In this document: one piece after another, positions 1 through 19,582 of the stretch
Position numbering within the stretch: position 1 is the first letter of the stretch
Layout: the number at the start of each line of letters is the position of its first letter
IMG/VR virus record: IMGVR_UViG_3300044846_002555
Location: 78,860 to 142,859 of that record
DNA: 64,000 bases
Source: a virus
Reading direction: 5' to 3' (one strand)
Made by a program: the position numbers and the translations under genes
The notes under the pieces: model-generated
The model's database searches: none
Told to the model about the DNA's origin: nothing
The model's input: the letters and a program-made list of their open reading frames with translations, nothing else

Positions 1-1
1 A

Positions 2-742
2 ATGACACCAACGCCTACTCAAACAATAACCCCAACAATGACTAAAACTCCAACACCTACACCAACATTAACACCTACACCAACATCTAGTTCGGCTCAA
101 TTATGGTATTTATATTCGTCTTGTTTATTAGTGGATGGAGAGTCACAAGTTATCTTACAACCAATATTAGTATTACCGACATTAACTATTGGTGACGTGT
201 TTGTTTTCAATGTACCGGATAGTAAACCTGAATGTTGGTCATTAATTAATACTTATAATGGTTTACCATCATCAATTCCGTTTGGTGCTTTAGTATTTAA
301 TACTAATTATTTCACATCAGTATCTAACACTATTTACCCATTTAATGAAGGTAGAGAATGTGATGAATGTCAAGAAGGTATAAATAATATTGAACCAATA
401 ACTAATAATTTTTTAGTTACAGTATATAAATCTAATTGTAACATAACAAATATTTCACCACCATTTTACTTTTCTAATGATTCTACATTCCCAATTGATA
501 TTAGTAGTCCATTTGTTGGTGTACATTCAGGTTTTAATGGTGATTTATCCATAACCGTTGTTAGTACATTAAATCAAAGTCAATGTGTTTCCTTGATTGT
601 AGATGGTGTAACTTATTTATCACCACAAACAATAACATTTAACTATCTTGAACCTCAAACTCAAGTTGTTGAGTTTTTAAATGTAAATATATCTGAGAAT
701 TCTACATTTGAAATTAATCTGACCGGAGGGTCTTGTTTATAA
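2..742 (+). CDS. Thr-Pro-rich virion surface protein, C-terminal part (cut by window edge)
   Basis: The frame is open from the first bases, so the gene very probably begins outside the window. Residues 1-30 are a mucin-like Pro-Thr repeat, followed by a beta-rich, Ser/Asn/Thr-rich region with an E-C-D-E-C pair near residue 122. Pro-Thr linkers of the same kind occur in the minus-strand fibre genes at 1384 and 14475, so a tail-fibre or decoration protein is the likely role. No enzyme motif is visible. It converges on the resolvase gene at 778 across a shared terminator. It is the only fibre-like gene on the plus strand here. Confidence 0.7.
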   Translation: MTPTPTQTITPTMTKTPTPTPTLTPTPTSSSAQLWYLYSSCLLVDGESQVILQPILVLPTLTIGDVFVFNVPDSKPECWSLINTYNGLPSSIPFGALVFNTNYFTSVSNTIYPFNEGRECDECQEGINNIEPITNNFLVTVYKSNCNITNISPPFYFSNDSTFPIDISSPFVGVHSGFNGDLSITVVSTLNQSQCVSLIVDGVTYLSPQTITFNYLEPQTQVVEFLNVNISENSTFEINLTGGSCL

Positions 743-743
743 T

Positions 744-780
744 AAAAAACCCCCTCGTTAAAAGGGGGTTATTTTTTTTA
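744..780. terminator. Bidirectional intrinsic terminator
   Basis: The arms AACCCCC (748-754) and GGGGGTT (764-770) form a hairpin with A-rich sequence before and an eight-base T tract after. It lies between the convergent genes ending at 742 and 778 and can serve both strands. Confidence 0.85.
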
Positions 781-1377
781 CCATATTTTTTCTTGTTTCA
801 TATGACCTATAACACAACAGTAAGCATCTGTTTGGTCAAAATTTTCTTTTTTCAGGGTATTGTTTCTTGTATATAACCAAGTGATTTGAGGTTCTTTTTT
901 GGCTATTAAATCCCATATAATCATTTTCTTGTCAATGTCTTTAGGAAGTCCTCCGAATAGTACGTATTTACCTTTATCATTTAATTGAGTTAACTCCGGA
1001 AAGGCGAATTTACGAGAATTGTATGTTGATATAAAATCAGGTACGACACCTAATACATCATATATCTCTTTAGTAACTAAAGTATTGAACCTTAATAAAG
1101 TTTGAACTGTGTAAACATTGTTTGAGTTCAATAAAGGTTCTTCAATAATAACTTTAGTAATACCCATGTCTTTATATTCTAAAAGTTTAGTTCTAAAGAT
1201 TTGACCTTTTAGAAGTAATTCTTTTATTTTATTTTCTTCTTTTGGTTTTGGAACGGGTGATATATGAGTTAATTCAAGTAGTTGTTGACTTTGTATATCA
1301 AATAACGCCCAACCAATTGTTTTTGTACTCACATCTAATCCTAAAACTTTAGGACTTTCTTTAAGTGTTTTTTTCAT
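778..1377 (-). CDS. RuvC-like Holliday junction resolvase
   Basis: This is a 199-residue RNase H-fold protein of the RuvC type. The first strand carries G-L-D-V-S-T (catalytic D15) followed by GWALF. The second acidic site is in VIIEEPL (E79/E80), and the C-terminal site is D-Q-T-D-A-Y (D181, D184). This is the usual four-acid arrangement and the usual length. In phages such enzymes resolve branched replicative DNA before packaging. It sits downstream of the virion genes rather than in the recombination block at 16-23 kb. The start is the only ATG ahead of the catalytic strand, 6 bp after the stop of the gene at 1384. Confidence 0.85.
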   Translation of the reverse strand: MKKTLKESPKVLGLDVSTKTIGWALFDIQSQQLLELTHISPVPKPKEENKIKELLLKGQIFRTKLLEYKDMGITKVIIEEPLLNSNNVYTVQTLLRFNTLVTKEIYDVLGVVPDFISTYNSRKFAFPELTQLNDKGKYVLFGGLPKDIDKKMIIWDLIAKKEPQITWLYTRNNTLKKENFDQTDAYCCVIGHMKQEKIW

Positions 1378-1383
1378 AATTTA

Positions 1384-3873
1384 TTAGAAATCAAATTTAA
1401 CCAAAAACTGTTGAATCCCTTGTCTTAACACAGGAGATTGTAGCTTTGATACAATCATAAGATTCATATCAGAATCGTAAAGCCCAATTTCAGTAATATA
1501 TGAACTTGTTCCTTTAGTCCATGTAGGGTTTGATGTTGATTGAAACTCTGCTTGACCAAGATTAATCTTATATTTCATTTCATAAATGGTTGCTTCAATA
1601 TCCGTTTCTAATGAACCGTAGAAATAATATTCATCACCAAAATTTAATGAAGGTGAAGTTGTATTATTATCTACTAATGGAATGAATAGATTTAAGTTAT
1701 AATCATCAGCCGCTGCATAGTTTTCTTCAGTGATTGTAAATGTTGTTCCTGTTAAACTATCTACGGTTAAATAACCATTGATTGTGGTTGCACTTATTTG
1801 AGGTGTAAAATCAATTATTTTCCAATCATTCGGGTCAGGTCTACCTGTACCAATTACTTTTTGACAAATAACTTGGAATGTGTCAGCGTAAAACCCTGTT
1901 ATTAAGTCACAGGAAGGACACAGAGTCGTTGTTGTTGTCGTTGTGGTAGTTGTGGTTGGAATTAACGTTGGTTGGTTTAAACAAGGGAATTCAGCTCCAA
2001 ATCTAATTGAAACGTTTTGTTCAGTTAAACCTCCACAAGAAATGTTTGGTCCTTGAATTTTGGTGTAGTAATTACAATGTAATGAATTCGTAAAAATATC
2101 GGTATTACTAAATCTATAAGTTACGTACATATATTCAGTGTCCGCTGTTAATATACCGTTAACTGTTGGTTGATTATTCTCAACCACACAAGTGTTAGGT
2201 GTTGTTAGACCAACTTTAGGTGCGGGTAATGTCCAGTTACGATTTGACTTGTAAGACATTGCTGCGATAATCTCCTCATCATCAATTATAATAATTTGTG
2301 AATCAGGGAACACTTTACCAACTCTACTTGGTAACCCGTTACTATTTGGATGGGTGTCCCAAAGTTGATAATATCTAATACCCGGCATATTCATATCCGT
2401 ATTTTTAGTAGAATATAAATACTCAACTTCAAATAATGGACTTCCTTCATCAGTTAAGTCATCAAAACCCGGTGGGTCAACCCAAAAAGTTTCACCTTTA
2501 CAACATTCAGGATTTTTATGCCACATTAACCAAGGTAAATGTAATCTAAAGTTACGAGCTTCACCCGTTGTATCTGTAGGATTATTAGGGTCGTAAGGTT
2601 CAAAGGCAAATTTCTCACCATAGAAGAAATCAATTGATTGATTAGTATAGTGAATAATAGCAATAGCTTTTTGCTCACTTGGTTGAACAACAACTTGTTC
2701 ATCAAATGAATTATAATAATAAACAACACTTGTATCGGTTTGTCCACTATCTGACATATATCCAAAATATTCTTTACTACCTAAATAAGACGCTGAACCA
2801 AAATATTGATAACCTTTATAAAATGAATCATACAACCCAGCAGGATTTTCCGACCAAGGAATATTCATATTCCAAATTTTAACATCGGACTCGTCTGTAC
2901 TACATAAAGATTCAAAATTAATAACATTTTGATTCCAATGAGAACTTGGTGTAACACTATCGTATATTGTAGTCATATTTGGTGGGTATACTAATACTCT
3001 AGCAAAACATCCACTTGAAAAGTTTGAAAAATCAGGTGTTGGTCTGTCTAATGTATAATGACCTAAACAAATATCCACAATTTTATAAGTTAATATCGGA
3101 TAACAACTACTCATTGACATCTCACAGTTAGGTGGAGTCGGAGTCGGAGGTAATGGTGTTGTACAACAAGTTGAGGAAGGTGTTGGTGTAGGTGTAGGTG
3201 ACTCACATAAATAAGTTGTTTGAGTTGGTGTTGGTGTAGGGGTTGGTGAAGAATCTATTGATGGTGTTACTGTTGGAGTTGGGGTTGATGTTGGTGTTAC
3301 ACCTGGTTCACAATAACAATTATATTCTCCTTGACCATCATAATATATTGTAACAAAATCACCAATCATTGGTAATCTTACAATATTTGAATTACACCCT
3401 GAATATACTAATTGAATAACACTACCACCTGTTAATGTAGACATATCTACAAGATAGTTAGAGTTAATTGTATATTGGCTATTTGTTAACGCACTCCAAT
3501 TAATTGTAGTTGCGGTTGTATTACCTGTAAAAAATCCTCTCATAGCCGCTCTATTATATACAGTTTGAGGAACTGACGCCATATAAGGGATTCCATATGT
3601 ATTACCGGTTATTCCGTCAACATAATATGGATATTTAACATTTTGTTTGTTAGATTCAGGTTTACCTGTTGAATTTTGAGCATTAAACGCTGGCTCAAGA
3701 ATTTTTGTTGAGGTTTGATTATAAGGTGTTCCGGTTAATGTATTATAAGACACTTCACTATCACCTACTTGAAAATAAGATATGTTAAAACTACCTTCTG
3801 ATAGTTTTTGTCTTGCAGTATCGGTTAGTCTTGTACTAAGTAAACCTTGTGTATTTTTTAATATGTATCCCAT
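1384..3873 (-). CDS. Large tail-fibre/baseplate-associated protein with Thr-Pro and poly-Thr linkers
   Basis: An 829-residue virion protein. Residues 12-45 (start TRLTDTARQKL, end YFQVGDSEV) resemble the N-terminal attachment region of phage tail-collar fibre proteins, which read 'L-T-D-x-G-x-x-x-L ... F-x-V-G-D'. Residues about 190-250 are Pro-Thr repeats, and an uninterrupted Thr run lies near residue 641 just before a C-P-S-C pair. The C-terminal part (SYITEIGLYDSDMNLM) fits a baseplate-proximal fibre fold. The start lies only 4 nt from a TATTTATA element, implying a nearly leaderless late transcript. The fibre role is inference from these patterns. Confidence 0.65.
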   Translation of the reverse strand: MGYILKNTQGLLSTRLTDTARQKLSEGSFNISYFQVGDSEVSYNTLTGTPYNQTSTKILEPAFNAQNSTGKPESNKQNVKYPYYVDGITGNTYGIPYMASVPQTVYNRAAMRGFFTGNTTATTINWSALTNSQYTINSNYLVDMSTLTGGSVIQLVYSGCNSNIVRLPMIGDFVTIYYDGQGEYNCYCEPGVTPTSTPTPTVTPSIDSSPTPTPTPTQTTYLCESPTPTPTPSSTCCTTPLPPTPTPPNCEMSMSSCYPILTYKIVDICLGHYTLDRPTPDFSNFSSGCFARVLVYPPNMTTIYDSVTPSSHWNQNVINFESLCSTDESDVKIWNMNIPWSENPAGLYDSFYKGYQYFGSASYLGSKEYFGYMSDSGQTDTSVVYYYNSFDEQVVVQPSEQKAIAIIHYTNQSIDFFYGEKFAFEPYDPNNPTDTTGEARNFRLHLPWLMWHKNPECCKGETFWVDPPGFDDLTDEGSPLFEVEYLYSTKNTDMNMPGIRYYQLWDTHPNSNGLPSRVGKVFPDSQIIIIDDEEIIAAMSYKSNRNWTLPAPKVGLTTPNTCVVENNQPTVNGILTADTEYMYVTYRFSNTDIFTNSLHCNYYTKIQGPNISCGGLTEQNVSIRFGAEFPCLNQPTLIPTTTTTTTTTTTLCPSCDLITGFYADTFQVICQKVIGTGRPDPNDWKIIDFTPQISATTINGYLTVDSLTGTTFTITEENYAAADDYNLNLFIPLVDNNTTSPSLNFGDEYYFYGSLETDIEATIYEMKYKINLGQAEFQSTSNPTWTKGTSSYITEIGLYDSDMNLMIVSKLQSPVLRQGIQQFLVKFDF

Positions 3874-3877
3874 GTGA

Positions 3878-3885
3878 TATAAATA
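3878..3885 (-). promoter_or_regulatory. TATTTATA element (candidate late promoter) for 1384
   Basis: A perfect TATTTATA in gene sense, 4 nt upstream of the ATG at 3873. It is one of twelve perfect copies placed within about 30 nt of a start in this window. Confidence 0.5.
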
Positions 3886-3903
3886 TTCTTATTTTTTTTA
3901 TTT

Positions 3904-4929
3904 TTAATTGACACTTATTATTTCTACTCTACAACATCCACAACCACTAATACTAGCGTTACCAATTGAGAATAAATCCTGACTTGATGTGTAAGTACAA
4001 GGTGTTAATGGGTCGTTTTGTGTTATTGTCGTTGTTGTGTTTAATATAATATTGTCTGAAGACGTAAAATTTAACGAATTCCAACTTTCGGTATAATAAT
4101 CTAAATAATTAACTAAATTTTGGCAACCTTGTATTGGATTATAATCAGTGTTAGTTGTTGTTAAACCACTTGTTGTTAGTGGAATAGAAACATTATTTTT
4201 AGATAATATAGTATTAGTCGTTAAAGTTGCTGTGGTAGCGCTTGGTGAATAATAAAAAGTGTTATAATGTAATATGTTAAAATTAACCGTAATACCACTT
4301 GGTAATGCCGGAATTACACTAAAAGTTGTTGTGTATTGTTTAGTTAATGTTGTATTTGTGTTAACTGGATTTGTTATTGTTGTATTTAATTTTAATTGAT
4401 ATAATGTCGGAGGTGCCGGCGCATTCAATGTCACGTTATTACTATTAGTATTACCACTCGAATCAATAACCTTAACACTATATATTCCTGAACACAAATT
4501 AGTAAATGTTGGGGAATTAAAATATGTAATACCATTATCAATTGAGTATTGATAAGGTGGATAACCTCCCGACGCGGATACCATTAAATTACCATCACAC
4601 GTACAAATTGGTTGATTAACACTAAAAGTCAATGAGTTAACTCCTAATGGGTTACAAACCCCTTCATTTACTACCACAGTCCCGTTGGCTCCTAATATAT
4701 ACCAAGAGTTAAGCGGGGGTACTGATGATGGTAATGAAGAAAACATCAAATAAGATAAATTACCACCTGTTAGTTTCCATTTATTAATAGAAGTGTCCCA
4801 AGTGATTAAATAAGTATAATCGTCTGACACCCATTGATTGTAATCATTAGAATCAACACCATAAGGGTTAAAATGTATTTGTAAATTATCTATACTTGAA
4901 TTTAAACAAAAATTATATTCTATTTCCAT
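3904..4929 (-). CDS. Virion protein with a SprB-type repeat
   Basis: A 341-residue protein that I do not recognise as a whole. Residues about 101-163 match the SprB repeat of flavobacterial gliding adhesins: a short Cys-Asp-Gly-Asn lead-in, G-G-Y-P-P-Y-Q-Y-S, then C-S-G-I-Y-S-V-K-V-I-D-S-S-G. The rest is Ser/Thr/Asn-rich and beta-like, ending in GCGCCRVEI. I chose the ATG at 4929 because it follows the previous stop by 2 nt, as elsewhere in this cluster. An in-frame ATG at 4956 would add nine residues and overlap the upstream gene. A surface role next to the fibre genes is inferred. Confidence 0.65.
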   Translation of the reverse strand: MEIEYNFCLNSSIDNLQIHFNPYGVDSNDYNQWVSDDYTYLITWDTSINKWKLTGGNLSYLMFSSLPSSVPPLNSWYILGANGTVVVNEGVCNPLGVNSLTFSVNQPICTCDGNLMVSASGGYPPYQYSIDNGITYFNSPTFTNLCSGIYSVKVIDSSGNTNSNNVTLNAPAPPTLYQLKLNTTITNPVNTNTTLTKQYTTTFSVIPALPSGITVNFNILHYNTFYYSPSATTATLTTNTILSKNNVSIPLTTSGLTTTNTDYNPIQGCQNLVNYLDYYTESWNSLNFTSSDNIILNTTTTITQNDPLTPCTYTSSQDLFSIGNASISGCGCCRVEIISVN

Positions 4930-4931
4930 AA

Positions 4932-5492
4932 TTAAGTTGTTGAAGTTAATTGACATATAGTACTTGCTGTAAAATCACCCCAATAATCAACAACAGTCAC
5001 AGGATAAGAACCAACAGGTAAATTCATAACCGCGGGGCTAATATTCCCTAATACAGGACCACCCCAAATATATTTATAAGGTGGTGTACCACCGGTTATT
5101 GAGACAGATACTCTACCATCATTTGATGTTGGGGTTGTTGGGTTAATCGAATCACACTCAATTGTCATTGGGAATACCGTTATTACATCACATTCATTAG
5201 ATTGAATAAAAGTAATTGCTGGTTGTGGTGGAGGTGGGGGAAAACAACTATAAGCATTTTCAATACAATCAGAGCAATCGGGATATAATACGACACTTCC
5301 ATTTCCCGCATCATATATTAATGACCCGGAAAGTATTGGTCCTTGTATTAGAGTTGCACATCCACTGAATGAAGGTATTGTTATTGAATAAACACTACCT
5401 AAAATCGGGAAAGGTAAAGTAAGGTCATTTACTCCGAAAAAATTATCGGATTCATCAAATTTTTCGCAACATTTTTTAAAATAATATATCAT
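4932..5492 (-). CDS. Virion protein with a C-terminal SprB-type repeat
   Basis: A 186-residue protein. Residues 109-180 form a SprB-type repeat (S-N-D-G-R-V-S-V, G-G-T-P-P-Y-K-Y-I-W, then L-P-V-G-S-Y-P-V-T-V-V-D). The N-terminal half has a D-C-S-D-C pair (near residue 72) like the Cys pairs in the genes at 2 and 12256, followed by a polyproline stretch. The gene is 2 nt upstream of 3904 and probably co-transcribed from the TATTTATA element at 5514. SprB repeats are known from secreted flavobacterial adhesins, so a role at the virion surface is plausible but inferred. Confidence 0.65.
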   Translation of the reverse strand: MIYYFKKCCEKFDESDNFFGVNDLTLPFPILGSVYSITIPSFSGCATLIQGPILSGSLIYDAGNGSVVLYPDCSDCIENAYSCFPPPPPQPAITFIQSNECDVITVFPMTIECDSINPTTPTSNDGRVSVSITGGTPPYKYIWGGPVLGNISPAVMNLPVGSYPVTVVDYWGDFTASTICQLTSTT

Positions 5493-5512
5493 TATAATTT
5501 GTTTCAGTTATA

Positions 5513-6493
5513 CTATAAATAATCCTTTATTTGTTTTTTCACCAAAGATTTCATAACTTCCACATATTTTTTTGTTGAACTTTGAGAACTTACATAATCA
5601 AAAAAGTTAATATCCTCTTTTAATTTATCTAATGGGTTAATATTAATAAAATCTCCTTTATAAAATTTATCTTGTTTTTGGTTACCGGTTACTCCTGCCA
5701 TATGAAGAATTGGTTTATCTTCATATATTTTTATTGAGTCAGTTGCCCATGAAAATTCAAACTCGGGTGTAATTCTTGTCTCAATTCCGTGTAACCATAA
5801 GTTCCATAATAATGACCACATTTCTGCGGTCCAAAATTGAATTTCACCGGGACTTATTGGGAATCTTCTTTGATAATCTAACATTTGGTCATATAGTGGA
5901 ACACAATCTGCATAAATTTTTTCCCATAATAACCAATCGGTGTTTTTAATTAGGTATTGACCACCACCTGAATTTTCTTGATTACATTCGATACATTCGA
6001 CTGAAACACCAATAACATCAGCCATTTCGTTAAGTAATTGACCTTTACCGGATGTAGGGTGAGCACTTTCATAACGATTACAACAATCCATAATATAATT
6101 ATATCCGATATAACCTATGGTATCGGATAAGTAAGTAATATCGTCATTAATTAAACTATCAAAATTTGGTAATTTTCTAAATATAATATCAGAGTCGTGT
6201 AAGAAAAAACATTTACCATATTCAGGAAAATCTTTTAACCATTTTGAAATTAAAAAAGGTTTAACTGTTGGTATATAATGTTTTTGAGGTCTATCGTCAA
6301 TATAATGATGTACGTTAACACCCGTATCTTTTAATTTTAAAGATTCTTCAGTTGGTTTACCATCTTCACTTATTATTCCAAGTAATACGTGTATTTGATT
6401 TGGGGGGACACCATGTTCAATAAAGTTATGTATATATACCATTATTTGCCAATGGAAATATGGTACATCAGGTTGAGCTGTAACAAAAATCAT
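5513..6493 (-). CDS. GT-A-type glycosyltransferase-like protein
   Basis: A 326-residue protein with a GT-A-like layout. It has an N-terminal strand (MIFVTAQPD), then CFFLHDSDIIF with a D-x-D motif (D100, D102) that in this fold binds the metal and sugar nucleotide. A W-rich acceptor region around 200-250 includes GEIQFWTAEMW. There is no signal peptide or membrane segment, so it should act in the cytoplasm. It lies among fibre genes whose Pro-Thr tracts would be natural O-glycosylation sites, so virion-protein glycosylation is a reasonable inference. Transfer to DNA or to host surface sugars is also possible. The start is followed upstream by 78 nt without a gene. Confidence 0.6.
   Translation of the reverse strand: MIFVTAQPDVPYFHWQIMVYIHNFIEHGVPPNQIHVLLGIISEDGKPTEESLKLKDTGVNVHHYIDDRPQKHYIPTVKPFLISKWLKDFPEYGKCFFLHDSDIIFRKLPNFDSLINDDITYLSDTIGYIGYNYIMDCCNRYESAHPTSGKGQLLNEMADVIGVSVECIECNQENSGGGQYLIKNTDWLLWEKIYADCVPLYDQMLDYQRRFPISPGEIQFWTAEMWSLLWNLWLHGIETRITPEFEFSWATDSIKIYEDKPILHMAGVTGNQKQDKFYKGDFININPLDKLKEDINFFDYVSSQSSTKKYVEVMKSLVKKQIKDYL
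5514..5521 (-). promoter_or_regulatory. TATTTATA element (candidate late promoter) for 4932/3904
   Basis: Perfect TATTTATAGTA in gene sense, 21 nt before the ATG at 5492 and overlapping the stop codon of the glycosyltransferase gene. The flanking bases match the copies at 11934 and 60325. Confidence 0.55.
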
Positions 6494-6559
6494 AATAATT
6501 AAAACGTTTTTAATTAAATATAAATGACAATCAAATGTAATAAATGGTAAAGATGATGA

Positions 6560-6567
6560 TATTTATA
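6560..6567 (+). promoter_or_regulatory. TATTTATA element (candidate late promoter) for 6572
   Basis: Perfect TATTTATA, 4 nt upstream of the ATG of the small plus-strand gene at 6572. Confidence 0.5.
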
Positions 6568-6571
6568 TAAT

Positions 6572-6742
6572 ATGAAACTGATTAGAACAATATCAAATTT
6601 GGTTACAGAATCTAAAAGAATTTACGAAGAGGCCTGTGAAAAAGGTGTCAACGAAAAAGAATTAGATAGATTAGAAAAAAACTACAATGAATCTTTAAAA
6701 CTTTTAAAGTTGTACGAAGGTTTAGGTAAAAAAACGGAATAA
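6572..6742 (+). CDS. Small helical protein with N-terminal LVTE tag
   Basis: A 56-residue plus-strand gene embedded in the minus-strand fibre cluster. The start MKLIRTISNLVTES is strikingly similar to MRLTNTLSTLITEQ of the gene at 38164, and both end in [VI]-T-E. The rest is a charged amphipathic helix with leucines at heptad spacing (LDRLEKNYNESLKLLKLYEG). It has its own TATTTATA element 4 nt upstream. I cannot name a function. The tag suggests an internal virion protein matured by the prohead protease (inference). Confidence 0.6.
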   Translation: MKLIRTISNLVTESKRIYEEACEKGVNEKELDRLEKNYNESLKLLKLYEGLGKKTE

Positions 6743-6744
6743 TA

Positions 6745-9700
6745 TTACGTTCCGTAAACTATTTCAATACCTTCAATGTGTATAGTCCATCTTAAAGTTT
6801 CTCCAACAACACCGGTTACCTGTATGTCTAAAGCGTCATTAGTATCGTCAGCGGTAATTGCAACGTCATAAGATGAGTTAGTTTCTACATCAGTACCAAT
6901 AGTTGATACAGTACCGATTAAAGAAGTTACTCCACCTACATTCTTAATCGCAACTTTTCTTATATAGTGAGCTCCTCCTGAACCATCTGATTTAATACCA
7001 CCAATATTTACTGTAACAAACATTGCAGTTCCTGCAATTACGGATATAAGTTGAGTTGTTCCATCTAAAAATATATTAACTGGTGTCGCATTTGTTGTTT
7101 TATTTCTACCAACTAAGTCAATTTGTTGTGATGTTCCTTTTATTAAACCATTAAAACTACCTGAAGAAAAAGACCTTTGACCGAAACGAGGTGCACATGA
7201 TAATGTTCCACCAAGAATTGATGAATAACAACCTGTGGTAGTGTTGCCACAACCTCCACCAATAAATGAATGGGTACCACATGAAATATTTGATATACCA
7301 CCAACAATTGCCGAACAACCACTAAACACGACATTTCCATTACCACCACCAACAAAAGAACCTGATGAACAAACCCCATTTACGTTTCCACCAACAATTA
7401 CAGATAGGGTTGTACTTGATAATGCGGGTGTTGCAATACAGTTTGATTGACCACCACCAATAAAGTTAGAATCACCATGAGTTCTATTTGACATACCGCT
7501 AACAATTGCTGAGTATCCATATACCCATTGGCATGTAATACAGTTTCCATTACCCCCACCTATAAATGAAAAACTTAAACGAGTTGTATTATTATTACCC
7601 CCACCAATAAATGAAGAGTTTCCTATAGTAATATTACAATAACCACCACCAATTGTTGAACATCCCCCACTTGAATTATTCTTTTGACCACCACCAATTG
7701 TTGAAGTATCTCCTGATGAGATATTATTATATCCACCACTGATTGTTGAAGTGGCTCCTGATAAACGGTTTTTAGCTCCACCTCCAATTGTTGATATTCT
7801 ACCACATATCACATTACTATAACCACCACTAATTGTTGTGAAATAACATGATGATGATGTATTATCACAACCACCGGCAATTACCGAACAATTTCCACAA
7901 GCGCGATTTTTATATCCACCACCAATTGTTGAGGTAGCACCGGATGAGACATTACATCTACCACCAACAACAGTTGACCAACTACCTGAAGATAAATTAC
8001 AAACCCCACCACCAATTGTTGAACACGCCCCTGATGCGATGTTTCTATAACCTCCACTTATTGTTGATAATTTACCCGCATTAAATGTACAAGTTGGACT
8101 AGTCGTTACAGCTCCTGTTGTAAAGTTAAATGTTCCTCCACTAGTATTATTAAAAATACCACCACCGATAGTTGTACCTAAAGAACAACATTCGTTATTT
8201 GGTGATTGTATTCTATTATTAAGACCACCACCAATTGTTGAAAATCTTGCATTTATTATGTTAATACAACCACCACCAATTGTTGAAGTATAACCTGAAG
8301 AATTATTATTACTACCACCACCAACAGTTCCAAGTATTCCGTAGACACGATTGTCAATACCACCCCCAATTGTTCCACCATCACCAAAAATTCTTTGTGA
8401 TTGACCACCACTAATCGTTGCTCCTAAACAATACACAACATTTAATGCACCTCCTCCAATGGTTGAAGTATTTCCGCTGATTACATTATCAATTCCACCC
8501 CCAATGAATGAATCACTACCCGATACACTATTAGACCTACCACCACCAATTATTGAACATAAACCTGATGCGGTATTCTTACAGCCACCACCAACAAATG
8601 AACAATTTCCTGATGCGGTATTACAAAAACCACCTAAAATTGATGACCTTAAACCTGATGCGGTATTACATTGACCACCACTTACTGTTGAATAATTACA
8701 TGATGATATATTTTTAAAACCACCACCAATTGTTGAACAAACCCCTATGGCTTGATTACAAATTCCTCCGGCAATTGTTGAAGTAGTTCCTGTTGCGATA
8801 TTATTACATCCTCCCCCAATTGTTGAACTATTACCCACAACAAAATTTTTACAACCACCACCAATAAATGAATGGGTACTTGTTATAGTATTTTGACTAC
8901 CACCAACAATACTTGAAGTGGCTCCTGATACTGTATTACCAATACCTCCACCAATAAATCCTTGACAAAATCCACCTGAACTTGTTGTAAAATTTCGTAA
9001 AAATGGTTGTGAGGAAGAAAAAGGACTCACAGAGACAGTTGCACCACTAACATACAAGTTTGTATATGGTGAGGAATATGTTTGTCCTGTAATAACTACG
9101 TTTCTACTACATCCGAAGTTATCATATGTTAATAAAAGGTCGTTTACGCTAAATGATGATAATTGATTCCCGAACAATTGTAATGTACAAGTATTTGCGG
9201 AATATGAACTTATTAGTTGAGAATTGCCTATAAAGTTTAATGTTCCACCTCCAATTATAGAATGTCTTGCGTAACTTACGTTAACGCTTCCACCCCCAAT
9301 AACACCAAATTCTAACACAACTTTATTATTATTACCACTTACAATACCACCACCATAAGAACATTGAGCCAAACAGTTACCACATCCTCCTAAAATTGCT
9401 GCTCTAACTCCATATGTTTTATTAGCTGTTCCACCGGCTATAACACCATCTTCACCAACACCTGTTGTTCCTGATATTAAGTTACCTCTACCTCCACCAA
9501 TAAATCCGAATTCGTTACATATTTTATTATTTGTTCCACCTGCGATTACTGAATTTGATGGGTTCATTGTATTACTAGTTATACAATTGTAAAAACCACC
9601 ACCTATTGTAGAATATGTTCCACAAACGAGATTAAGTCTACCACCGGCAATTGTTGAGTTATTACAACATGTTGTATTACAACAACCACCACCAACAAAT

Positions 9701-11916
9701 GAAAAACATCCTGATGATGTATTTCCTAATCCACCACCAATAAATGAACAAGCACCACATGCACAATTTGATATACCACCACCAATCGTTGAATGACTTC
9801 CACATGATATATTAGACTCACCACCACCAATTGTTGAGTAATTACAATATGTTCTATTATACGAACCTCCGGCTATTGTTGAACAATTACCGTAAGTGCA
9901 ATTGTGATTACCGCCACCAATAAATGAATTATAACCTGACGATAAATTATTAGTACCATTACCAATAAATGAGTATTGACCACTAGCGACATTATAACTT
10001 CCCGCCCCAATAAATGACGAATAATTACTTGATGTATTACTTGAACCACCACCTATAAAAGATTTAATACCGCTAGCAGTATTTTGTTGACCTCCAACAA
10101 CACTTGACGCATTTCCACTTGCGGTGTTTAATACTCCCGCTCCAATAAACGAGCCGTATGAACCACTTGCGTTATTACAATAACCCCCACCGATAAATGA
10201 CCAATTTCCTGTTGATGTATTTTTACAACCACCACCAATAAATGAATGTGTTCCTCCACTAACTATATTTTGTCGTCCACCAACCACAACTGAAAAATCT
10301 GTTGTTGCAGAGTTTGATAAACCACCTAATACTGCACTACAATTTCCTGATGCAAGATTACTAACACCACATCTAACAGATGAGTTAACGCCTGTTCCTG
10401 TAATGATTACGGCTGATGAACCACCTCCACCACCGGCAATAGGTACTAAAAGTCCATTTGTACTAACTCCAACATAACAACCACTACAAGTACTCATAGA
10501 AGTAATAATCATGTCGTTAACAAATGTCGTACAATCTCTATTTGATGTTATATTTGAACCAATAATGAAAGATTCATTATTTGAAACCGTATTATTCACA
10601 CCTCCGGCTATAAAACTTCCAACACCAATGGCGTTATTTGTTCCACCACCAACTATTGATGAAAGAACACCACTTGCGGTATTTGAACCAAACGAATTCC
10701 CACCACCACCTACAAATGAACGATATCCTGATGCGGTATTACCGCAACCTCCACCAACAAAAGAACCATCACACGACGCGGTATTCTTACTACCACCACC
10801 AATTGTTGAGGTAGTACCTGATGCTATATTACAAAAACCACCACCTATTGTTGAATCATTACCTGATGATATGTTAATACGTCCACCACCAATGAATGAA
10901 CAAGTTCCTGATATTGAATTACATTGACCACCGGCAATTGTTGATTTATCACCACAAACGGTATTTGATTGACCACCTCCAATAGTTGAACTATCACAAT
11001 AAGCTTTATTACCACCACCTCCGGCAATTGTTGAGTTGTTGGATAAGGCTTGATTACAATAACCACCACCAACGGTTGCGTCACCATTATTTGGATATGG
11101 TCCGGTAACACAAGCTATATTATATCCACCACCTGCAATAGTATTTCTTGGTCCGACAACAAGATTACAACAACCACCACCTATTGTTGATGTATTTCCT
11201 GATATTCTATTTAAATGACCACCACCAATAAATGAATGAGTTCCTCCGCTAATAACGTTTTGACAACCTCCACCAATTGTTGCTCCGGATGTTGTTAATA
11301 TGTTACAAAATCCACCACTTATAGTTGAATCATTATTTGATACCGTATTACAACGACCACCTCCAATTATTGAGCAACAACCCGATACGACATTACAATA
11401 ACCACCACCAATTGATGAAATAAATCCTGAAACCTCATTTCTACATCCACCACCAATAATTGAGGCATTCCCTGACGCAGTATTTCTAGTACCACCACCA
11501 ACAGTTGAAGCGAAACTTCCTGATATATTACAACGACCACCACTTATTGTTGAATAACAACCTGCGTTATTATTTTTATAACCACCACCAATTAATGAAT
11601 GTGTTCCACCACTAACTATATTTTGTCGTCCACCAACAACCATTGAATAATTTGTTGTTGCTGAATTTGATAACCCTCCTAACGCGCCGGAATTATTACC
11701 ACATGCTAGATTATTAACATCTCTTCTAATTGATGAGTTAACACCTGTTCCACTTACAATTACAACAAATGGTGAACCACTAATTGCTTCGTCAATTGTT
11801 GATTTATATGATGAACCTGCAGGATTCTGAGTCGGGTTATTAGTATCAACAATGTGAATTAATGTTTGATTAGTTGTAAACCCTGATGGTGAATATGTTC
11901 TTTGAGTTAAAATCAT
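6745..11916 (-). CDS. Giant repeat adhesin / tail fibre (about ninety 15-residue GGG repeats)
   Basis: A 1723-residue protein. After a roughly 60-residue N-terminal region, it consists almost wholly of 15-residue units of the form GGG-x-x-N-x-x-S-G-x-x-S-x-I. These recall the beta-roll head repeats of trimeric autotransporter adhesins. A non-repeat insert lies near residues 960-1040. A second copy of the start block (GTGVNSS ... GGLSNSATT) occurs near residue 505, suggesting internal duplication. The last 130 residues form a distinct non-repeat beta domain ending in IEGIEIVYGT, a candidate receptor-binding tip. Cysteine is unusually frequent, often in the G-G-G-C-x-N position. A TATTTATA element lies 17 nt before the start. 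Confidence 0.8.
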   Translation of the reverse strand: MILTQRTYSPSGFTTNQTLIHIVDTNNPTQNPAGSSYKSTIDEAISGSPFVVIVSGTGVNSSIRRDVNNLACGNNSGALGGLSNSATTNYSMVVGGRQNIVSGGTHSLIGGGYKNNNAGCYSTISGGRCNISGSFASTVGGGTRNTASGNASIIGGGCRNEVSGFISSIGGGYCNVVSGCCSIIGGGRCNTVSNNDSTISGGFCNILTTSGATIGGGCQNVISGGTHSFIGGGHLNRISGNTSTIGGGCCNLVVGPRNTIAGGGYNIACVTGPYPNNGDATVGGGYCNQALSNNSTIAGGGGNKAYCDSSTIGGGQSNTVCGDKSTIAGGQCNSISGTCSFIGGGRINISSGNDSTIGGGFCNIASGTTSTIGGGSKNTASCDGSFVGGGCGNTASGYRSFVGGGGNSFGSNTASGVLSSIVGGGTNNAIGVGSFIAGGVNNTVSNNESFIIGSNITSNRDCTTFVNDMIITSMSTCSGCYVGVSTNGLLVPIAGGGGGSSAVIITGTGVNSSVRCGVSNLASGNCSAVLGGLSNSATTDFSVVVGGRQNIVSGGTHSFIGGGCKNTSTGNWSFIGGGYCNNASGSYGSFIGAGVLNTASGNASSVVGGQQNTASGIKSFIGGGSSNTSSNYSSFIGAGSYNVASGQYSFIGNGTNNLSSGYNSFIGGGNHNCTYGNCSTIAGGSYNRTYCNYSTIGGGESNISCGSHSTIGGGISNCACGACSFIGGGLGNTSSGCFSFVGGGCCNTTCCNNSTIAGGRLNLVCGTYSTIGGGFYNCITSNTMNPSNSVIAGGTNNKICNEFGFIGGGRGNLISGTTGVGEDGVIAGGTANKTYGVRAAILGGCGNCLAQCSYGGGIVSGNNNKVVLEFGVIGGGSVNVSYARHSIIGGGTLNFIGNSQLISSYSANTCTLQLFGNQLSSFSVNDLLLTYDNFGCSRNVVITGQTYSSPYTNLYVSGATVSVSPFSSSQPFLRNFTTSSGGFCQGFIGGGIGNTVSGATSSIVGGSQNTITSTHSFIGGGCKNFVVGNSSTIGGGCNNIATGTTSTIAGGICNQAIGVCSTIGGGFKNISSCNYSTVSGGQCNTASGLRSSILGGFCNTASGNCSFVGGGCKNTASGLCSIIGGGRSNSVSGSDSFIGGGIDNVISGNTSTIGGGALNVVYCLGATISGGQSQRIFGDGGTIGGGIDNRVYGILGTVGGGSNNNSSGYTSTIGGGCINIINARFSTIGGGLNNRIQSPNNECCSLGTTIGGGIFNNTSGGTFNFTTGAVTTSPTCTFNAGKLSTISGGYRNIASGACSTIGGGVCNLSSGSWSTVVGGRCNVSSGATSTIGGGYKNRACGNCSVIAGGCDNTSSSCYFTTISGGYSNVICGRISTIGGGAKNRLSGATSTISGGYNNISSGDTSTIGGGQKNNSSGGCSTIGGGYCNITIGNSSFIGGGNNNTTRLSFSFIGGGNGNCITCQWVYGYSAIVSGMSNRTHGDSNFIGGGQSNCIATPALSSTTLSVIVGGNVNGVCSSGSFVGGGNGNVVFSGCSAIVGGISNISCGTHSFIGGGCGNTTTGCYSSILGGTLSCAPRFGQRSFSSGSFNGLIKGTSQQIDLVGRNKTTNATPVNIFLDGTTQLISVIAGTAMFVTVNIGGIKSDGSGGAHYIRKVAIKNVGGVTSLIGTVSTIGTDVETNSSYDVAITADDTNDALDIQVTGVVGETLRWTIHIEGIEIVYGT
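7195..11710 (-). repeat. Imperfect 45-bp tandem repeat array inside the adhesin gene
   Basis: On the plus strand the core reads about ACCACCACCAATTGTTGA, recurring every 45 bp, with occasional 48-51 bp units. The units differ by many substitutions but keep the frame. Long stretches also stay open in antisense frames because of this repetition, so those antisense frames are not counted as genes. Confidence 0.85.
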
Positions 11917-11933
11917 TGGTTTTTGTTTTATAC

Positions 11934-11941
11934 TATAAATA
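11934..11941 (-). promoter_or_regulatory. TATTTATA element (candidate late promoter) for the adhesin
   Basis: Perfect TATTTATAGTATAAAA in gene sense, 17 nt before the ATG at 11916. It is almost identical to the copy at 5514 over 13 bases. Confidence 0.55.
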
Positions 11942-11946
11942 GTTCA

Positions 11947-12252
11947 TTATTGGAAATCGAATATCTCAAAGTCCATAAATTCAAAATATTCGTAATCTTG
12001 GAATTGTTTTGGAACTGGTGGTAATAAGTTACAATATACCACTTCAAATCTTTCACAACCATCCCCATAAATAACTTTAATACCTACTGCGGCAACATTA
12101 TTAAATTGTGGAGGTAAGACAATAACATTATCCGGAGGTACTGATGTAACAATTGTTGCAATTAATATACATTGGTTACCATAAACATCACACGCATAAA
12201 TTGTATACGGGAAGTTTGAACCTGTAATTGATTGTATGTTAATTGCTGTCAT
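11947..12252 (-). CDS. Small virion-cluster protein, paralogue of 15388
   Basis: A 101-residue beta-rich protein. It shares with the 71-residue product at 15388 the pattern I-x-I-x-x-I-T-G-x-x-(x)-F-P-[YF]-x-[IV]-Y-x-C-D near the N-terminus and I-K-V-I-x-x-[DN]-[GN]-C-E near residue 70. It adds an acidic/aromatic tail (EYFEFMDFEIFDF). It lies 3 nt after the stop of the 734-residue gene, within the same minus-strand operon. It may be a small structural or chaperone-like component; no function is known to me. Confidence 0.6.
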   Translation of the reverse strand: MTAINIQSITGSNFPYTIYACDVYGNQCILIATIVTSVPPDNVIVLPPQFNNVAAVGIKVIYGDGCERFEVVYCNLLPPVPKQFQDYEYFEFMDFEIFDFQ

Positions 12253-12255
12253 ATG

Positions 12256-14460
12256 TTAAAAAGCGTATGATGGGTTAAATGATGTAACTACCCCATTAAC
12301 AACTGTTACCGCTGTAACGGGATAGTTTGATGTGGTTATTGCACCATTAACAATTATATTTGAGTTGATTGTGAAAGTGTTACTTGTAACTCCTTGTGTC
12401 ACTTCAAAGTCATAAAGAGTTACCTCTTGACGTTTAGATTGACCTGATGATAATGTTCGTCCTTTAGAACTGTAATCACATGTTTGTGATGATAATGAGG
12501 GTATTTGTATATATGGTGAACTATTACCCGAAAAAGGGATGGTTGAATTATATGTGTCACAAAAATTGTAAAAACCATAAACCCTATATTTTGGATTATT
12601 TTGTGATACTAAATTTATATAACTATATTTAGCAAAAGGGTCAATATATCTTGAACCGGTATTATTGGTTAATACTCTATTATTACTTGTGGCAATTGAT
12701 GAATTATTAATATTAGTTACAATAGAATTTGTAACAAATTCACAACCAACATCACAATTTGTAAAATTTAAATTATTTTGAATTGTTGGCATTGTTATTT
12801 TTAAGGTATAGTTATTAGAGGTCTCACCTGTTTCTACAATACTTGAAAAGTGGATATTATAAGTCAATTCCTCAATATTATCACCACAAGGTTGATTATT
12901 TGGTGTGTTAGGTATTGAAAGTATTGCGTATTGATAATAAAGAATATTTGTTGAGTCATTAATCCATCCAGACGATGATTTTTTCGATTCATAAGATGAT
13001 TTATATGCGATTAAATCACTTAAATTACTAAAAGTCATATTAATAACACCTTCTACTGATGGACCTGGTATATTTTTTATAAATGAAATAGTATTTGTGT
13101 TTTGAAGTGAGCAAGAGATTTGTCCACCAATCGGTTGTAGGTTACATTGAACATAGTTTGTAGTTGTGTAAGCCTCGCGAGTTATTAATGAAGTTGTATT
13201 ATTACAGAAAACTTGTTCAAAATTATTATTAATATTTACTGATGTTTCTGTTGCCATATACTTATAAATGTCAGAGTTTGTAATTGCGGATGTGGTACAT
13301 CCTGATAGATTAAATTTAATAGTGTTTAGACCACAAGAAGCAGGGATGTTTATAATAGATGAAGTATCTATTTTATATGGGCTGTTTAAATAATCATCTA
13401 AACATAATGAACAATCAAAAGTATCTAAACAAGTAAAATAAAAATCCCAATTGGTTTGTTGATTATTTGGATTCGGAATCACTTCTAAAATTAAATAATC
13501 GCCAGGATTTCTAGATAATGATGTTAATGAAGTCACTTTAGATAAATAAGTACTATCTGGAATCCCGGAATTAATAAATGAACGCGTTGATGCTGATTTA
13601 GGTAATGTTAATAAATTTAAATTTGTAACGGTATCAACACCTATCGTTATAAATTCTAAAATAATTGGTTCACTATATGATGAACCATAAAAAGTGATTT
13701 TAAGAGTGTCAGGGACATTATTACCTTTAAACTTCCATGCAAAATAATCAGTTGTTGCTGATAATTCAAATGTTGAATTTATTGCTAATGGGATTACACC
13801 TGCCGCGGCACCGGCAAAATTAACTCTATGAGTATAATCCCCCTCTTCAGTTCCATTATCACATCTAAATGGTGCAACATTAACAGTTATTGCGTTAAAA
13901 CAATCTAACTCGGCTTGTATATAATTAGTACCACCTGTTTGAGAGAAATTAAGACCATCTAATTTAACTTTATCGATTATTGGAATATAATTTCCGGCTG
14001 GTTGCATTAGATTGGATAGTGGGTGTGTATTTTCGTAGGGTGAAAATTCACTACCATAACCTGATGTAAACGCTAATTGATTAGGGTTATCAGGTCCGTA
14101 CCAAAATATTCTATAATCAGATATTGTGTTTTGACAGCTACCGGTTAATTCTCCCGCAACTATTACTCCAACAGTATTAGTTTCATAATCCTCAAATCCT
14201 AATTCACACGTTTCACATAAATCGTTAGATAATATATCAATAGTAACACAACATTTTGATAATGTATCAATAATTTTAATAATTGTTGTCCCGTCAGGTA
14301 CATTACCCATAATGTATGGACAGTTGTTAAATAATTGAGAATAAGTTACGTTTGATTGGAACTCATTAAAAAATTGGTCAACATTAGAATAAATGTTGAA
14401 TAACCCTCCTAATGGTATTGTACCGGAATTTGTTAAACAAGTTGATGCTGAAAATGACAT
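12256..14460 (-). CDS. Large virion surface protein, unrecognised
   Basis: A 734-residue Ser/Thr/Asn-rich, beta-like protein without a signal peptide or membrane segment. It carries paired cysteines of the C-x-x-C type (L-C-E-T-C near residue 85, D-C-S-L-C-L near residue 353) like other products of this cluster. Codon use and composition match the neighbours. It sits between the Thr-Pro-rich 14475 gene and the small 11947 gene with 3-14 nt gaps, so all are probably one transcript. A tail-fibre, whisker or baseplate decoration role is inferred from position only. Confidence 0.6.
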   Translation of the reverse strand: MSFSASTCLTNSGTIPLGGLFNIYSNVDQFFNEFQSNVTYSQLFNNCPYIMGNVPDGTTIIKIIDTLSKCCVTIDILSNDLCETCELGFEDYETNTVGVIVAGELTGSCQNTISDYRIFWYGPDNPNQLAFTSGYGSEFSPYENTHPLSNLMQPAGNYIPIIDKVKLDGLNFSQTGGTNYIQAELDCFNAITVNVAPFRCDNGTEEGDYTHRVNFAGAAAGVIPLAINSTFELSATTDYFAWKFKGNNVPDTLKITFYGSSYSEPIILEFITIGVDTVTNLNLLTLPKSASTRSFINSGIPDSTYLSKVTSLTSLSRNPGDYLILEVIPNPNNQQTNWDFYFTCLDTFDCSLCLDDYLNSPYKIDTSSIINIPASCGLNTIKFNLSGCTTSAITNSDIYKYMATETSVNINNNFEQVFCNNTTSLITREAYTTTNYVQCNLQPIGGQISCSLQNTNTISFIKNIPGPSVEGVINMTFSNLSDLIAYKSSYESKKSSSGWINDSTNILYYQYAILSIPNTPNNQPCGDNIEELTYNIHFSSIVETGETSNNYTLKITMPTIQNNLNFTNCDVGCEFVTNSIVTNINNSSIATSNNRVLTNNTGSRYIDPFAKYSYINLVSQNNPKYRVYGFYNFCDTYNSTIPFSGNSSPYIQIPSLSSQTCDYSSKGRTLSSGQSKRQEVTLYDFEVTQGVTSNTFTINSNIIVNGAITTSNYPVTAVTVVNGVVTSFNPSYAF

Positions 14461-14474
14461 ATATATTTTAAATT

Positions 14475-15386
14475 TTAAGTTTTAGTATAAGCATAACCTT
14501 CTAATCCACAAGTAGTGATACATTCTGAAGGCATTCCTGATGGAGTTACTGTTGGTGTCGGTGATGGTGTTGGTACAATTGATTCAGAACAGAAAATACA
14601 ATCCGCACCTATTTGACTTCCATAAGGTCCAATTAGTAATGTAATGTTATCAATACCAATTGTGTTATTATTTATACCCATATAACTGATACAAATAATT
14701 TCACCATTAACATTCGCTTGATAAACTTCAAATTGTGTGATAGTATTACCGGTAGGTGTTATAATTTGATTAGTTGTGAATAACATCTTACCTGTACCAT
14801 AACACTCTTGGAATTGATAACTATAAGGACATACTATATTGTCGTCTATAGTGTTAAATGTTACCCCACCTTCAAAAGTACAATCACGACTAATCACCGG
14901 TGACGATGATGGTGTTATTGTTGGAGTTGGAGTTGGTGTTGGTGACACACTTTGAATTGTTGCGCTTATAATAACATTACATAAGTTAGTTGGTGTCGGA
15001 GTTGGTGTTGGTGTTGAGGTTGTTGTTGGAGTTGGAGTAGGTGTAGGTGTTGCGGGAAAATCACAATCAAAAATAGCTGAAAAATTTAAACTTGAACAAT
15101 TTTGAGTTGGACTAGGTGTGGGTGTTGGACACGCTCCACTTGAGAAATAAACATCATCTAAATCCGGACATGGGTTAAAACAAGGTGACTGACCTGATAA
15201 ATCACAAGTTCCGTCTAAAGCGGTTGATAAACACCATTGAGTTGACCCTGTGTTATAATAAATAAATAATCCATTTGTTTGACCGGTCCAATATAGTTCG
15301 GAGTTATGTGTCCCGGCACTAAAATAGATATCATCAAATGTTGGGTAACCAGTGTTTGAAAGGCAATATATTGAACTACACGGCAT
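14475..15386 (-). CDS. Thr-Pro-rich virion surface protein
   Basis: A 303-residue protein with two repeated N-terminal units. Each pairs F-D-D-I-Y-F-S-A-G or L-D-D-V-Y-F-S-S-G with a nearby cysteine. Residues about 89-165 are several Pro-Thr blocks separated by short Cys-containing segments, and another block lies near residue 275. This is a mucin-like linker architecture shared with the genes at 2 and 1384. It starts 1 nt after the stop of 15388. It is likely a fibre or head-decoration protein, and the Pro-Thr tracts are possible glycosylation targets for the enzyme at 5513 (inference). Confidence 0.6.
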   Translation of the reverse strand: MPCSSIYCLSNTGYPTFDDIYFSAGTHNSELYWTGQTNGLFIYYNTGSTQWCLSTALDGTCDLSGQSPCFNPCPDLDDVYFSSGACPTPTPSPTQNCSSLNFSAIFDCDFPATPTPTPTPTTTSTPTPTPTPTNLCNVIISATIQSVSPTPTPTPTITPSSSPVISRDCTFEGGVTFNTIDDNIVCPYSYQFQECYGTGKMLFTTNQIITPTGNTITQFEVYQANVNGEIICISYMGINNNTIGIDNITLLIGPYGSQIGADCIFCSESIVPTPSPTPTVTPSGMPSECITTCGLEGYAYTKT

Positions 15387-18674: not shown

Positions 18675-18918
18675 AGACAAATATACTGATGAAGAGTGGG
18701 ATGAACTTGAAAGAGAGATTGAACACGAAAAAAAATTGGGACAACCCGATGATAGGTATTTAACAATTTTTGTTGATAATTTAACTAAAGACCAATTAAT
18801 TCAACTCAAAAATAAATTAATTGAATGTGATACACCAAGACATCAATATTGGAGAATTGATGATTGGATAAAGTATAGAGAAAATAAAGAACGTGAGACA
18901 AATACAATTAACGACTAG
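18661..18918 (+). CDS. Hypothetical charged protein, GTG start
   Basis: An 85-residue acidic, helical protein (D-E-E-W-D-E-L-E-R-E near the start). The start is GTG at 18661, overlapping the gp47-like gene by 14 nt, and the end overlaps the next gene by 26 nt. No recognisable domain. Confidence 0.55.
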   Translation: MGNLRDKYTDEEWDELEREIEHEKKLGQPDDRYLTIFVDNLTKDQLIQLKNKLIECDTPRHQYWRIDDWIKYRENKERETNTIND

Positions 18919-19582
18919 TCAATTAAAATCTGTACAAGAATATTGTAAATTAAATAAAATTGAAGATGTCGACAATTTTATCACAAAATGTTTTGCGTCC
19001 GGATTTAGTATTGAAAAGTACGGGTTACTTGGTGAAGATTCGGAAAAACCGGTAGAGATTGAAATTATCAAAGAAATACGGGTTGAAGTTCCGGTTGAAG
19101 TCATCAAGGAGGTTGAAAAAATTGTTGAAGTTGTTAAGGAAGTTCCGGTCGAAACCATCAAAGAAGTTGAGGTCATCAAATATGTTGATAGAGAGGTGGT
19201 TAAGGAGGTTAAAGTGGAAGTTCCTGTCGAAAAAATAGTATATATTCACGACAAAAAAGAAGAAGAAAGTGTCACAAATTTAGACAATATTTGTGACAAA
19301 CCTGAACCAATAATAGTTGAAAAAATAGTTGAAATTATTAAGGAAGTTCCGGTTGAAAAAATAGTAGAGAAAATTGTAGAAGTTGAAAAGATTGTTGAGG
19401 TAGAAAAACCAAATGATAAGGTATTACTTCTTCAAGAAACTTTACAGACATTAAAAAAAGAATTATCTTTAAAAAACACAAAGATTGAAGAACTTGAAAA
19501 TAAAAATAAACAATTAGAATCTAATATCACAAATCAAAAAGCGGTGTATTTGAAAGGTTCTAACTTAAATGAAACAATGTAA
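18893..19582 (+). CDS. Coiled, EVPVEVIKEVEK-repeat protein
   Basis: A 229-residue protein with a GTG start. Residues 1-50 look like a small helical domain. Residues about 60-175 are tandem Val/Glu/Lys/Pro units (E-V-P-V-E-V-I-K-E-V-E-K and variants), and a coiled-coil tail follows (LKKELSLKNTKIEELENKNK). The repeat is shared with the cytoplasmic tail of the membrane protein at 28412. Long rods of this type are frequent in phage proteins, but their function is not established. It overlaps its neighbours by 26 and 14 nt, so it is probably translationally coupled. Confidence 0.6.
   Translation: MRQIQLTTSQLKSVQEYCKLNKIEDVDNFITKCFASGFSIEKYGLLGEDSEKPVEIEIIKEIRVEVPVEVIKEVEKIVEVVKEVPVETIKEVEVIKYVDREVVKEVKVEVPVEKIVYIHDKKEEESVTNLDNICDKPEPIIVEKIVEIIKEVPVEKIVEKIVEVEKIVEVEKPNDKVLLLQETLQTLKKELSLKNTKIEELENKNKQLESNITNQKAVYLKGSNLNETM
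19069..19408 (+). repeat. Degenerate tandem repeat encoding (E)VPVE-x-IKEVEKIVEV units
   Basis: The DNA repeats GAAGTTCCGGTTGAA and variants at roughly 21-48 bp spacing. The same words recur at 28905-29095, so the two loci have short homologous stretches. Confidence 0.65.

What the first reader, a model, noticed from the sequence alone, without database searches (positions are those of the whole stretch)
6745..11916. Giant Cys-rich 15-residue-repeat fibre with internal duplication
About ninety GGG-x-x-N-x-x-S-G repeats form most of a 1723-residue protein. Cysteine is very frequent at the position after GGG and before N, unusual for a cytoplasmically assembled fibre. The start block (GTGVNSS ... 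GGLSNSATT ... RQNIVSGGTHS) is repeated near residue 505. The 45-bp DNA repeats allow length change by recombination, so fibre length could vary.
Basis: partly seen in the sequence, partly recalled or inferred. Interest (0 to 1): 0.6.

Follow-up and report, generated by a model that had tools for sequence, protein, structure and literature searches.

The report
Length-variable, cysteine-rich phage tail fibre
A large phage appears to build its host-grabbing fibre from about ninety copies of a 15-residue coil like that of a bacterial adhesin, and close relatives swap, shorten, lengthen or drop this shaft between a fixed base and exchangeable tips, so fibre length seems to be something these viruses adjust.

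Summary
ORF 6745-11916 (minus strand) encodes 1723 residues. It carries 78 well-scoring 15-residue rungs plus irregular ones, 83 cysteines (4.8%, genome mean 1.25%), and a repeated start block (residues 45-136 and 496-587). The rung is the UspA1 type of left-handed beta-roll (PDB 3PR7, E=5e-18; no hit for a reversed 738-residue stretch). The gene is most likely a tail-fibre gene of a contractile-tailed phage. Relatives carry it in one slot, between a ~101-residue protein (92-98% identical) and a glycosyltransferase-like protein (92-99%). The fibre there has 898-1724 residues in the close clade, and 177 to more than 3300 more widely. The N-terminal adaptor is conserved; the shaft is a roll, a collagen-like GTSG stretch, or absent; there are about seven tip classes, two found both with and without a roll. 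Blocks in the middle change order between relatives. Cysteine mostly goes with the roll body, at exposed rung positions; it forms no same-position ladder above chance and is conserved like other surface residues. Length variation is supported, mainly by module exchange; one relative shows an exact 45-bp duplication. Trimerisation, virion location and cysteine function are untested.

The parts
6745..11916 (-). Fibre gene, 1723 aa
   Evidence: ORF; UspA1 hit
11767..11916 (-). N-terminal adaptor, aa 1-50 (contains NPAGSSYKSTIDEA); conserved in slot fibres whatever their body or tip
11593..11766 (-). Roll-start cap 1, aa 51-108 (SGTGVNSSIRRDVNN...GALGG)
   Evidence: repeated at aa 496-587
10567..11685 (-). 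Beta-roll 1, aa 78-450
   Evidence: rung register
10426..10566 (-). Roll-end neck and linker, aa 451-497 (IIGSNITSNRDCTTFVND...); resembles the C-terminal tip of shorter relatives L064 and L065a
   Evidence: (89.8% DNA identity with L066 aa 763-880)
10240..10425 (-). Roll-start cap 2, aa 498-559: the internal duplication
9211..10377 (-). Beta-roll 2, aa 514-902
   Evidence: AF2 pLDDT 81-89 for aa 700-779, falling to about 50-70 by aa 870
8956..9210 (-). Non-repeat insert domain, aa 903-987, between roll 2 and roll 3
   Evidence: AF2 not confident here
7204..8955 (-). Beta-roll 3, aa 988-1571
   Evidence: C-terminal part of the roll modelled mostly at pLDDT 75-92
6748..7137 (-). C-terminal beta-sandwich tip, aa 1594-1723, after a low-confidence linker (aa 1572-1593)
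   Evidence: 49 IMG/VR loci with this domain; AF2 pLDDT mostly above 90, Foldseek hits to phage tailspike/fibre chains and T4 gp9
11947..12252 (-). 101-aa protein just upstream; marks the fibre slot in relatives (adaptor, connector or chaperone not resolved)
5513..6493 (-). 326-aa protein just downstream, 92-99% identical in close relatives; glycosyltransferase-like by an invariant DSD motif (inference), homologous to a gene beside the major tail protein in Enterococcus phage phiFL1A
   Evidence: no Pfam hit

Best explanation
The gene encodes a tail-fibre (host-attachment) protein of a large contractile-tailed phage. Most of it is a shaft of UspA1-type left-handed parallel beta-roll: three stretches of roll, with a roll-end neck plus roll-start cap between rolls 1 and 2 (this is the internal duplication) and a small domain inserted between rolls 2 and 3. 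A conserved N-terminal adaptor probably joins it to the virion and a beta-sandwich tip caps the C-terminus. The fibre sits in a fixed slot in which different phages carry different shafts (roll, collagen-like or none) and different tips. The shaft therefore works as an exchangeable, length-adjustable spacer that sets reach and multivalent contact, while the tip (and perhaps insert and shaft surface) gives specificity. Length and surface change mainly by recombination that moves multi-rung modules, and sometimes by duplication of a rung. Shown: sequence family, modular variability, slot conservation. Inferred: trimer, virion location, receptor binding, adaptor role.
For: UspA1 head 3PR7: E=5e-18 with the sequence, 1e-23 with a profile; a reversed 738-aa stretch gives no hit. 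The 15-residue rung with the extra glycine is the published hallmark of the UspA1 roll (PMC9543794). AF2 gives strand pairs repeating every 15 residues and a confident C-terminal sandwich resembling phage tailspike and fibre chains and predicted viral trimeric-adhesin-head proteins. Contractile phage: sheath and baseplate wedge hits. Slot: flanking proteins 92-99% identical while the fibre shares about 42-51% in its best local alignment. Block order differs: window aa 451-567 then 695-1021 match L066 aa 763-880 and 409-735 at 90% and 85% DNA identity. L019 and L020 are 98.7% identical upstream, yet their fibres are 1113 and 1259 aa with a replaced middle. Tips 2 and 3 occur on fibres with and without a roll.
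Against: No proteomics or microscopy shows the protein in virions. The trimer was not modelled. Foldseek of the roll model found nothing significant in PDB, probably because the model mixes the roll with a badly predicted insert. The record is a fragment and the host is unknown.
Confidence: 0.78

Rival explanations
1. The cysteines are functional: they form disulfide or metal-bound ladders along the roll that stiffen the fibre after lysis exposes it to oxygen.
For: Cys reaches 24% of rung position 6 across the family and is 1-5.6% in roll fibres of this lineage, against 0.1-0.5% in roll fibres of other phages. Neighbouring rungs both carry Cys slightly more often than chance: 162 against 147, p=0.0065. 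A few Cys are invariant in five relatives, e.g. aa 765, 800, 848, 910, 936.
Against: Same-position Cys in neighbouring rungs is not enriched (55 against 49, p=0.18). Cys at exposed rung positions is conserved at 41%, like Arg or Ser, so most behave as exchangeable surface residues.
Confidence: 0.15
2. Length is a fast phase-variable trait: 45-bp repeats slip or recombine within a population.
For: L020 has an exact tandem rung duplication (60 bp exact repeat) and L065a has 25 rung pairs at 90% identity or more.
Against: The window gene has no near-identical adjacent rungs and a longest exact repeat of 30 bp. The gene is identical in 2-3 contigs of each of three genotypes. Differences between relatives are mainly multi-rung block exchanges.
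Confidence: 0.12
3. Variation is programmed by a dedicated enzyme (diversity-generating retroelement or DNA invertase/recombinase).
For: Hypervariable slot beside conserved genes.
Against: No reverse transcriptase, serine resolvase or tyrosine recombinase in the record or four relatives, while control genomes give hits. These records are fragments.
Confidence: 0.04
4. Ice-binding or other solenoid protein unrelated to attachment.
For: Weak hits to the LbR_Ice_bind family and to 3ULT.
Against: UspA1 matches are far stronger, and the gene sits among probable tail genes with phage fibre tips.
Confidence: 0.03

Closest known systems
UspA1 head of Moraxella catarrhalis (trimeric autotransporter adhesin; PDB 3PR7, 3NTN; Pfam PF18792 below its cut-off)
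   Same: 15-residue left-handed beta-roll rung with an extra glycine; roll followed by a neck
   Different: No membrane anchor domain was recognised here; the phage protein has about 90 rungs, a phage-type tip and many cysteines
YadA-domain structural proteins of cyanophages and pelagiphages (PMC9146016, PMC3909814)
   Same: Phage tail or structural proteins with a trimeric-autotransporter-type head; in cyanophage S-SZBM1 found in the virion by mass spectrometry
   Different: Described as YadA domains, much smaller in the cited case (444 aa); not reported there as length-variable plug-in shafts or Cys-rich
Adhesin-head-like proteins of uncultured Caudovirales phages (BFVD, e.g. A0A6J5LQZ0)
   Same: Predicted fold similar to the roll plus C-terminal sandwich
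   Different: Only about 10-23% sequence identity; function not tested
T4 gp9 (PDB 1QEX) and tailspikes/fibres of Acinetobacter and Klebsiella phages
   Same: Foldseek resemblance to the query model
   Different: TM-scores at most 0.32 for the whole model; distant at best

Membership tests
UspA1-type left-handed parallel beta-roll | Mostly 15-residue rungs with an additional conserved glycine | tested here: met
   78 rungs, GGG conserved; published definition in PMC9543794
UspA1-type left-handed parallel beta-roll | Sequence homology to the solved roll | tested here: met
   3PR7 E=5e-18; profile 1e-23; no hit for the reversed control
UspA1-type left-handed parallel beta-roll | Regular two-strand coil per repeat | tested here: met
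   AF2 monomer secondary structure, period 15
UspA1-type left-handed parallel beta-roll | Structural match to solved rolls | tested here: inconclusive
   Foldseek of the mixed roll/insert model gave no significant PDB hit
UspA1-type left-handed parallel beta-roll | Homotrimer | not testable with these tools
   Only monomer prediction offered
Trimeric autotransporter adhesin (type Vc) | C-terminal outer-membrane beta-barrel anchor | tested here: inconclusive
   Pfam and NCBIfam found no such domain in the protein, and the C-terminus is modelled as a sandwich shared with other phage proteins; no dedicated search
Phage tail fibre | Lies among tail genes of a tailed phage | tested here: met
   Sheath and baseplate wedge genes in the record; fibre-side cluster
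Phage tail fibre | Present in the virion and binds host | not testable with these tools
   Needs proteomics and adsorption assays

The most novel reading that the evidence does not exclude
These phages carry oxidation-cured fibres: the cysteine-rich roll is assembled reduced in the cell and cross-links in patches after lysis, stiffening the shaft or making it stick, while shaft length is tuned between lineages by swapping roll modules.
Probability: 0.12. Interest if true: 0.75.

Novelty: new variant of a known kind. Interest (0 to 1): 0.52.

Why it matters
The slot gives a natural series in which one adaptor carries shafts of very different length, including none, with tips shared between them. 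That makes the question of what fibre length is for testable by comparison. It also adds the 15-residue UspA1 roll to the shafts used by phages, and shows strong cysteine enrichment that goes with the roll in one lineage.

Tried and rejected
tblastn of the whole protein against isolate phages found nothing, likely because of the low-complexity filter; the N-terminal and neck/cap pieces also found nothing. Two scripts failed or printed nothing. Foldseek of the roll model was uninformative. In one search the 'longest exact repeat' printed for L064 is a stale value and is not used. A Cys-ladder test was negative and a Cys conservation test unremarkable. Retroelement, resolvase and tyrosine recombinase were sought and not found. 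The genome-contig scan with the tip profile gave only distant matches in MAGs of several phyla and no host. The 326-aa neighbour has no Pfam, NCBIfam or PDB hit, so 'glycosyltransferase' rests on its DSD motif.

Full report
Observation. The ORF at 6745-11916 on the minus strand is real and 1723 residues long. A position-weight scan gives 78 non-overlapping rungs of 15 residues, 62 steps between them exactly 15 residues, with irregular rungs between them. Cysteine is 83 of 1723 residues, against a length-weighted mean of 1.25% for the other ORFs of the 142,859-bp record. The start block recurs at residues 496-587 with 62% identity. An identical gene lies in a second IMG/VR contig within 19.9 kb of identical sequence.

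What it is. phmmer against PDB sequences finds the UspA1 head of Moraxella (3PR7, E=5e-18; 3NTN) and weakly an ice-recrystallisation-inhibition protein; profile searches reach 1e-23, and a reversed 738-residue stretch of the protein finds nothing. A published comparison of these rolls states that UspA1 is unusual in having mostly 15-residue repeats with an additional conserved glycine (PMC9543794), which is the pattern here. AlphaFold2 of residues 700-1045 gives strands repeating every 15 residues, with pLDDT of 81-89 for the first 80 residues, but fails on the inserted domain. Residues 1440-1723 are modelled well, ending in a beta-sandwich that resembles phage tailspike and fibre chains and predicted viral adhesin-head proteins. 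The record encodes a tail sheath and baseplate wedge proteins, so it is a contractile-tailed phage. The relatives L016-L018 include a 318-kb contig, so the genome is probably larger than the record.

Anatomy. N-terminal adaptor (aa 1-50); roll-start cap; roll 1; a neck (aa 451-497) that resembles the C-terminal end of shorter relatives; a second cap; roll 2; an inserted domain (aa 903-987); roll 3; linker; C-terminal sandwich. The internal duplication is thus a roll-end plus roll-start junction.

Variability. Close relatives carry the gene in the same place: a ~101-aa protein upstream (92-98% identical) and a 326-aa protein downstream (92-99%), with the fibre itself at about 42-51% in the best local alignment. 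Their fibres have 1724, 1296, 1259, 1113, 967 and 898 residues. Window residues 451-567 and 695-1021 match L066 residues 763-880 and 409-735 at 90% and 85% DNA identity, so block order is swapped. L019 and L020 share 98.7% DNA identity upstream through residue 125 and 92.7% from residue 800 (L019 numbering), while the middle is replaced or diverged and the length differs by 146 residues. Across relatives found through the 101-aa protein, the slot mostly holds a fibre with an N-terminal adaptor of one family, then a roll, a GTSG collagen-like stretch or another or no body, and one of about seven tip classes. Tip 2 occurs with a roll on L231, L250 and L262 and without one on L251 (177 aa), and tip 3 occurs with and without a roll. 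In 16 of the 80 loci no ORF of 100 aa or more lay in the slot, and a few loci held other proteins there. Within a genotype the gene is unchanged in 2-3 contigs. Adjacent rungs are not near-identical in the window gene, but L020 has an exact 45-bp duplication and L065a many similar rungs. No reverse transcriptase, resolvase or tyrosine recombinase was found in five records.

Cysteine. In the family it occurs at rung positions 5, 6, 8, 10-13 and almost never at 1-4, 7, 9, 14, 15. By analogy with the solved rolls these are loop or outward positions (inference). Roll fibres of other phages have 0.1-0.5%. In the same slot, GTSG-bodied or roll-less fibres with the adaptor have 0-0.6% in nearly all cases; one adaptor-bearing protein without rungs (L241) has 7%. 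So cysteine mostly goes with this roll, although neighbouring fibre-side proteins of the window are also cysteine-rich, 2.4-5.9%. There is no same-position ladder (p=0.18), a mild excess of adjacent Cys-bearing rungs (p=0.0065), and ordinary conservation.

How it works. Inferred: the adaptor docks the fibre on the tail, the roll sets reach, and the tip and exposed rung surfaces bind the host. About ninety coils at the usual 0.48 nm per coil would be about 43 nm (own knowledge of beta spacing, not measured). The 326-aa neighbour keeps an invariant DSD motif with phiFL1A gp51, a gene beside that phage's major tail protein; it may glycosylate tail proteins, which is a lead only.

Comparison. YadA-domain structural proteins in phage tails are known (PMC3909814, PMC9146016). 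This is therefore a new variant: the 15-residue UspA1 roll, of great length, cysteine-rich, in a slot with interchangeable shafts and tips. The literature search covered open-access papers only.

Noticed in passing
Outside the window: record G000:C1:3-1604 (L009): 3' end of a second UspA1-type roll fibre, cut by the record's start; in relative G001 (L091) the corresponding fibre (1981+ aa) has a GTSG shaft followed by a roll.
   Followed up: partly
Outside the window: record G000:C1:1639-19544 (L009): A cluster of glycosyl-, methyl- and sulfotransferase-like genes next to the second fibre; five proteins hit glycosyltransferase families in Pfam. Distant phage L046 has related genes downstream of two tandem roll fibres.
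   Followed up: partly
5513-6493: 326-aa protein downstream of the fibre, with 210 IMG/VR matches; no known family, invariant DSD motif, homologous to a gene beside the major tail protein in a Gram-positive phage.
   Followed up: partly
2-742, 1384-3873, 14475-15386: Threonine/proline-rich (PTPTPT) and poly-threonine linkers in fibre-side proteins, which might be glycosylation targets.
   Followed up: no
1-15386: Most fibre-side proteins here are cysteine-rich (2.4-5.9%) compared with the genome mean of 1.25%; two of them carry weak SprB-repeat hits.
   Followed up: partly
10511-10927: 138-aa plus-strand ORF antisense to the fibre; proline-rich mirror of the GGG codons, most likely not a gene.
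   Followed up: no
18893-19582 and 28412-29200: Two proteins with long VEVPVEVIKEV-type charged repeats, probably coiled coils.
   Followed up: no
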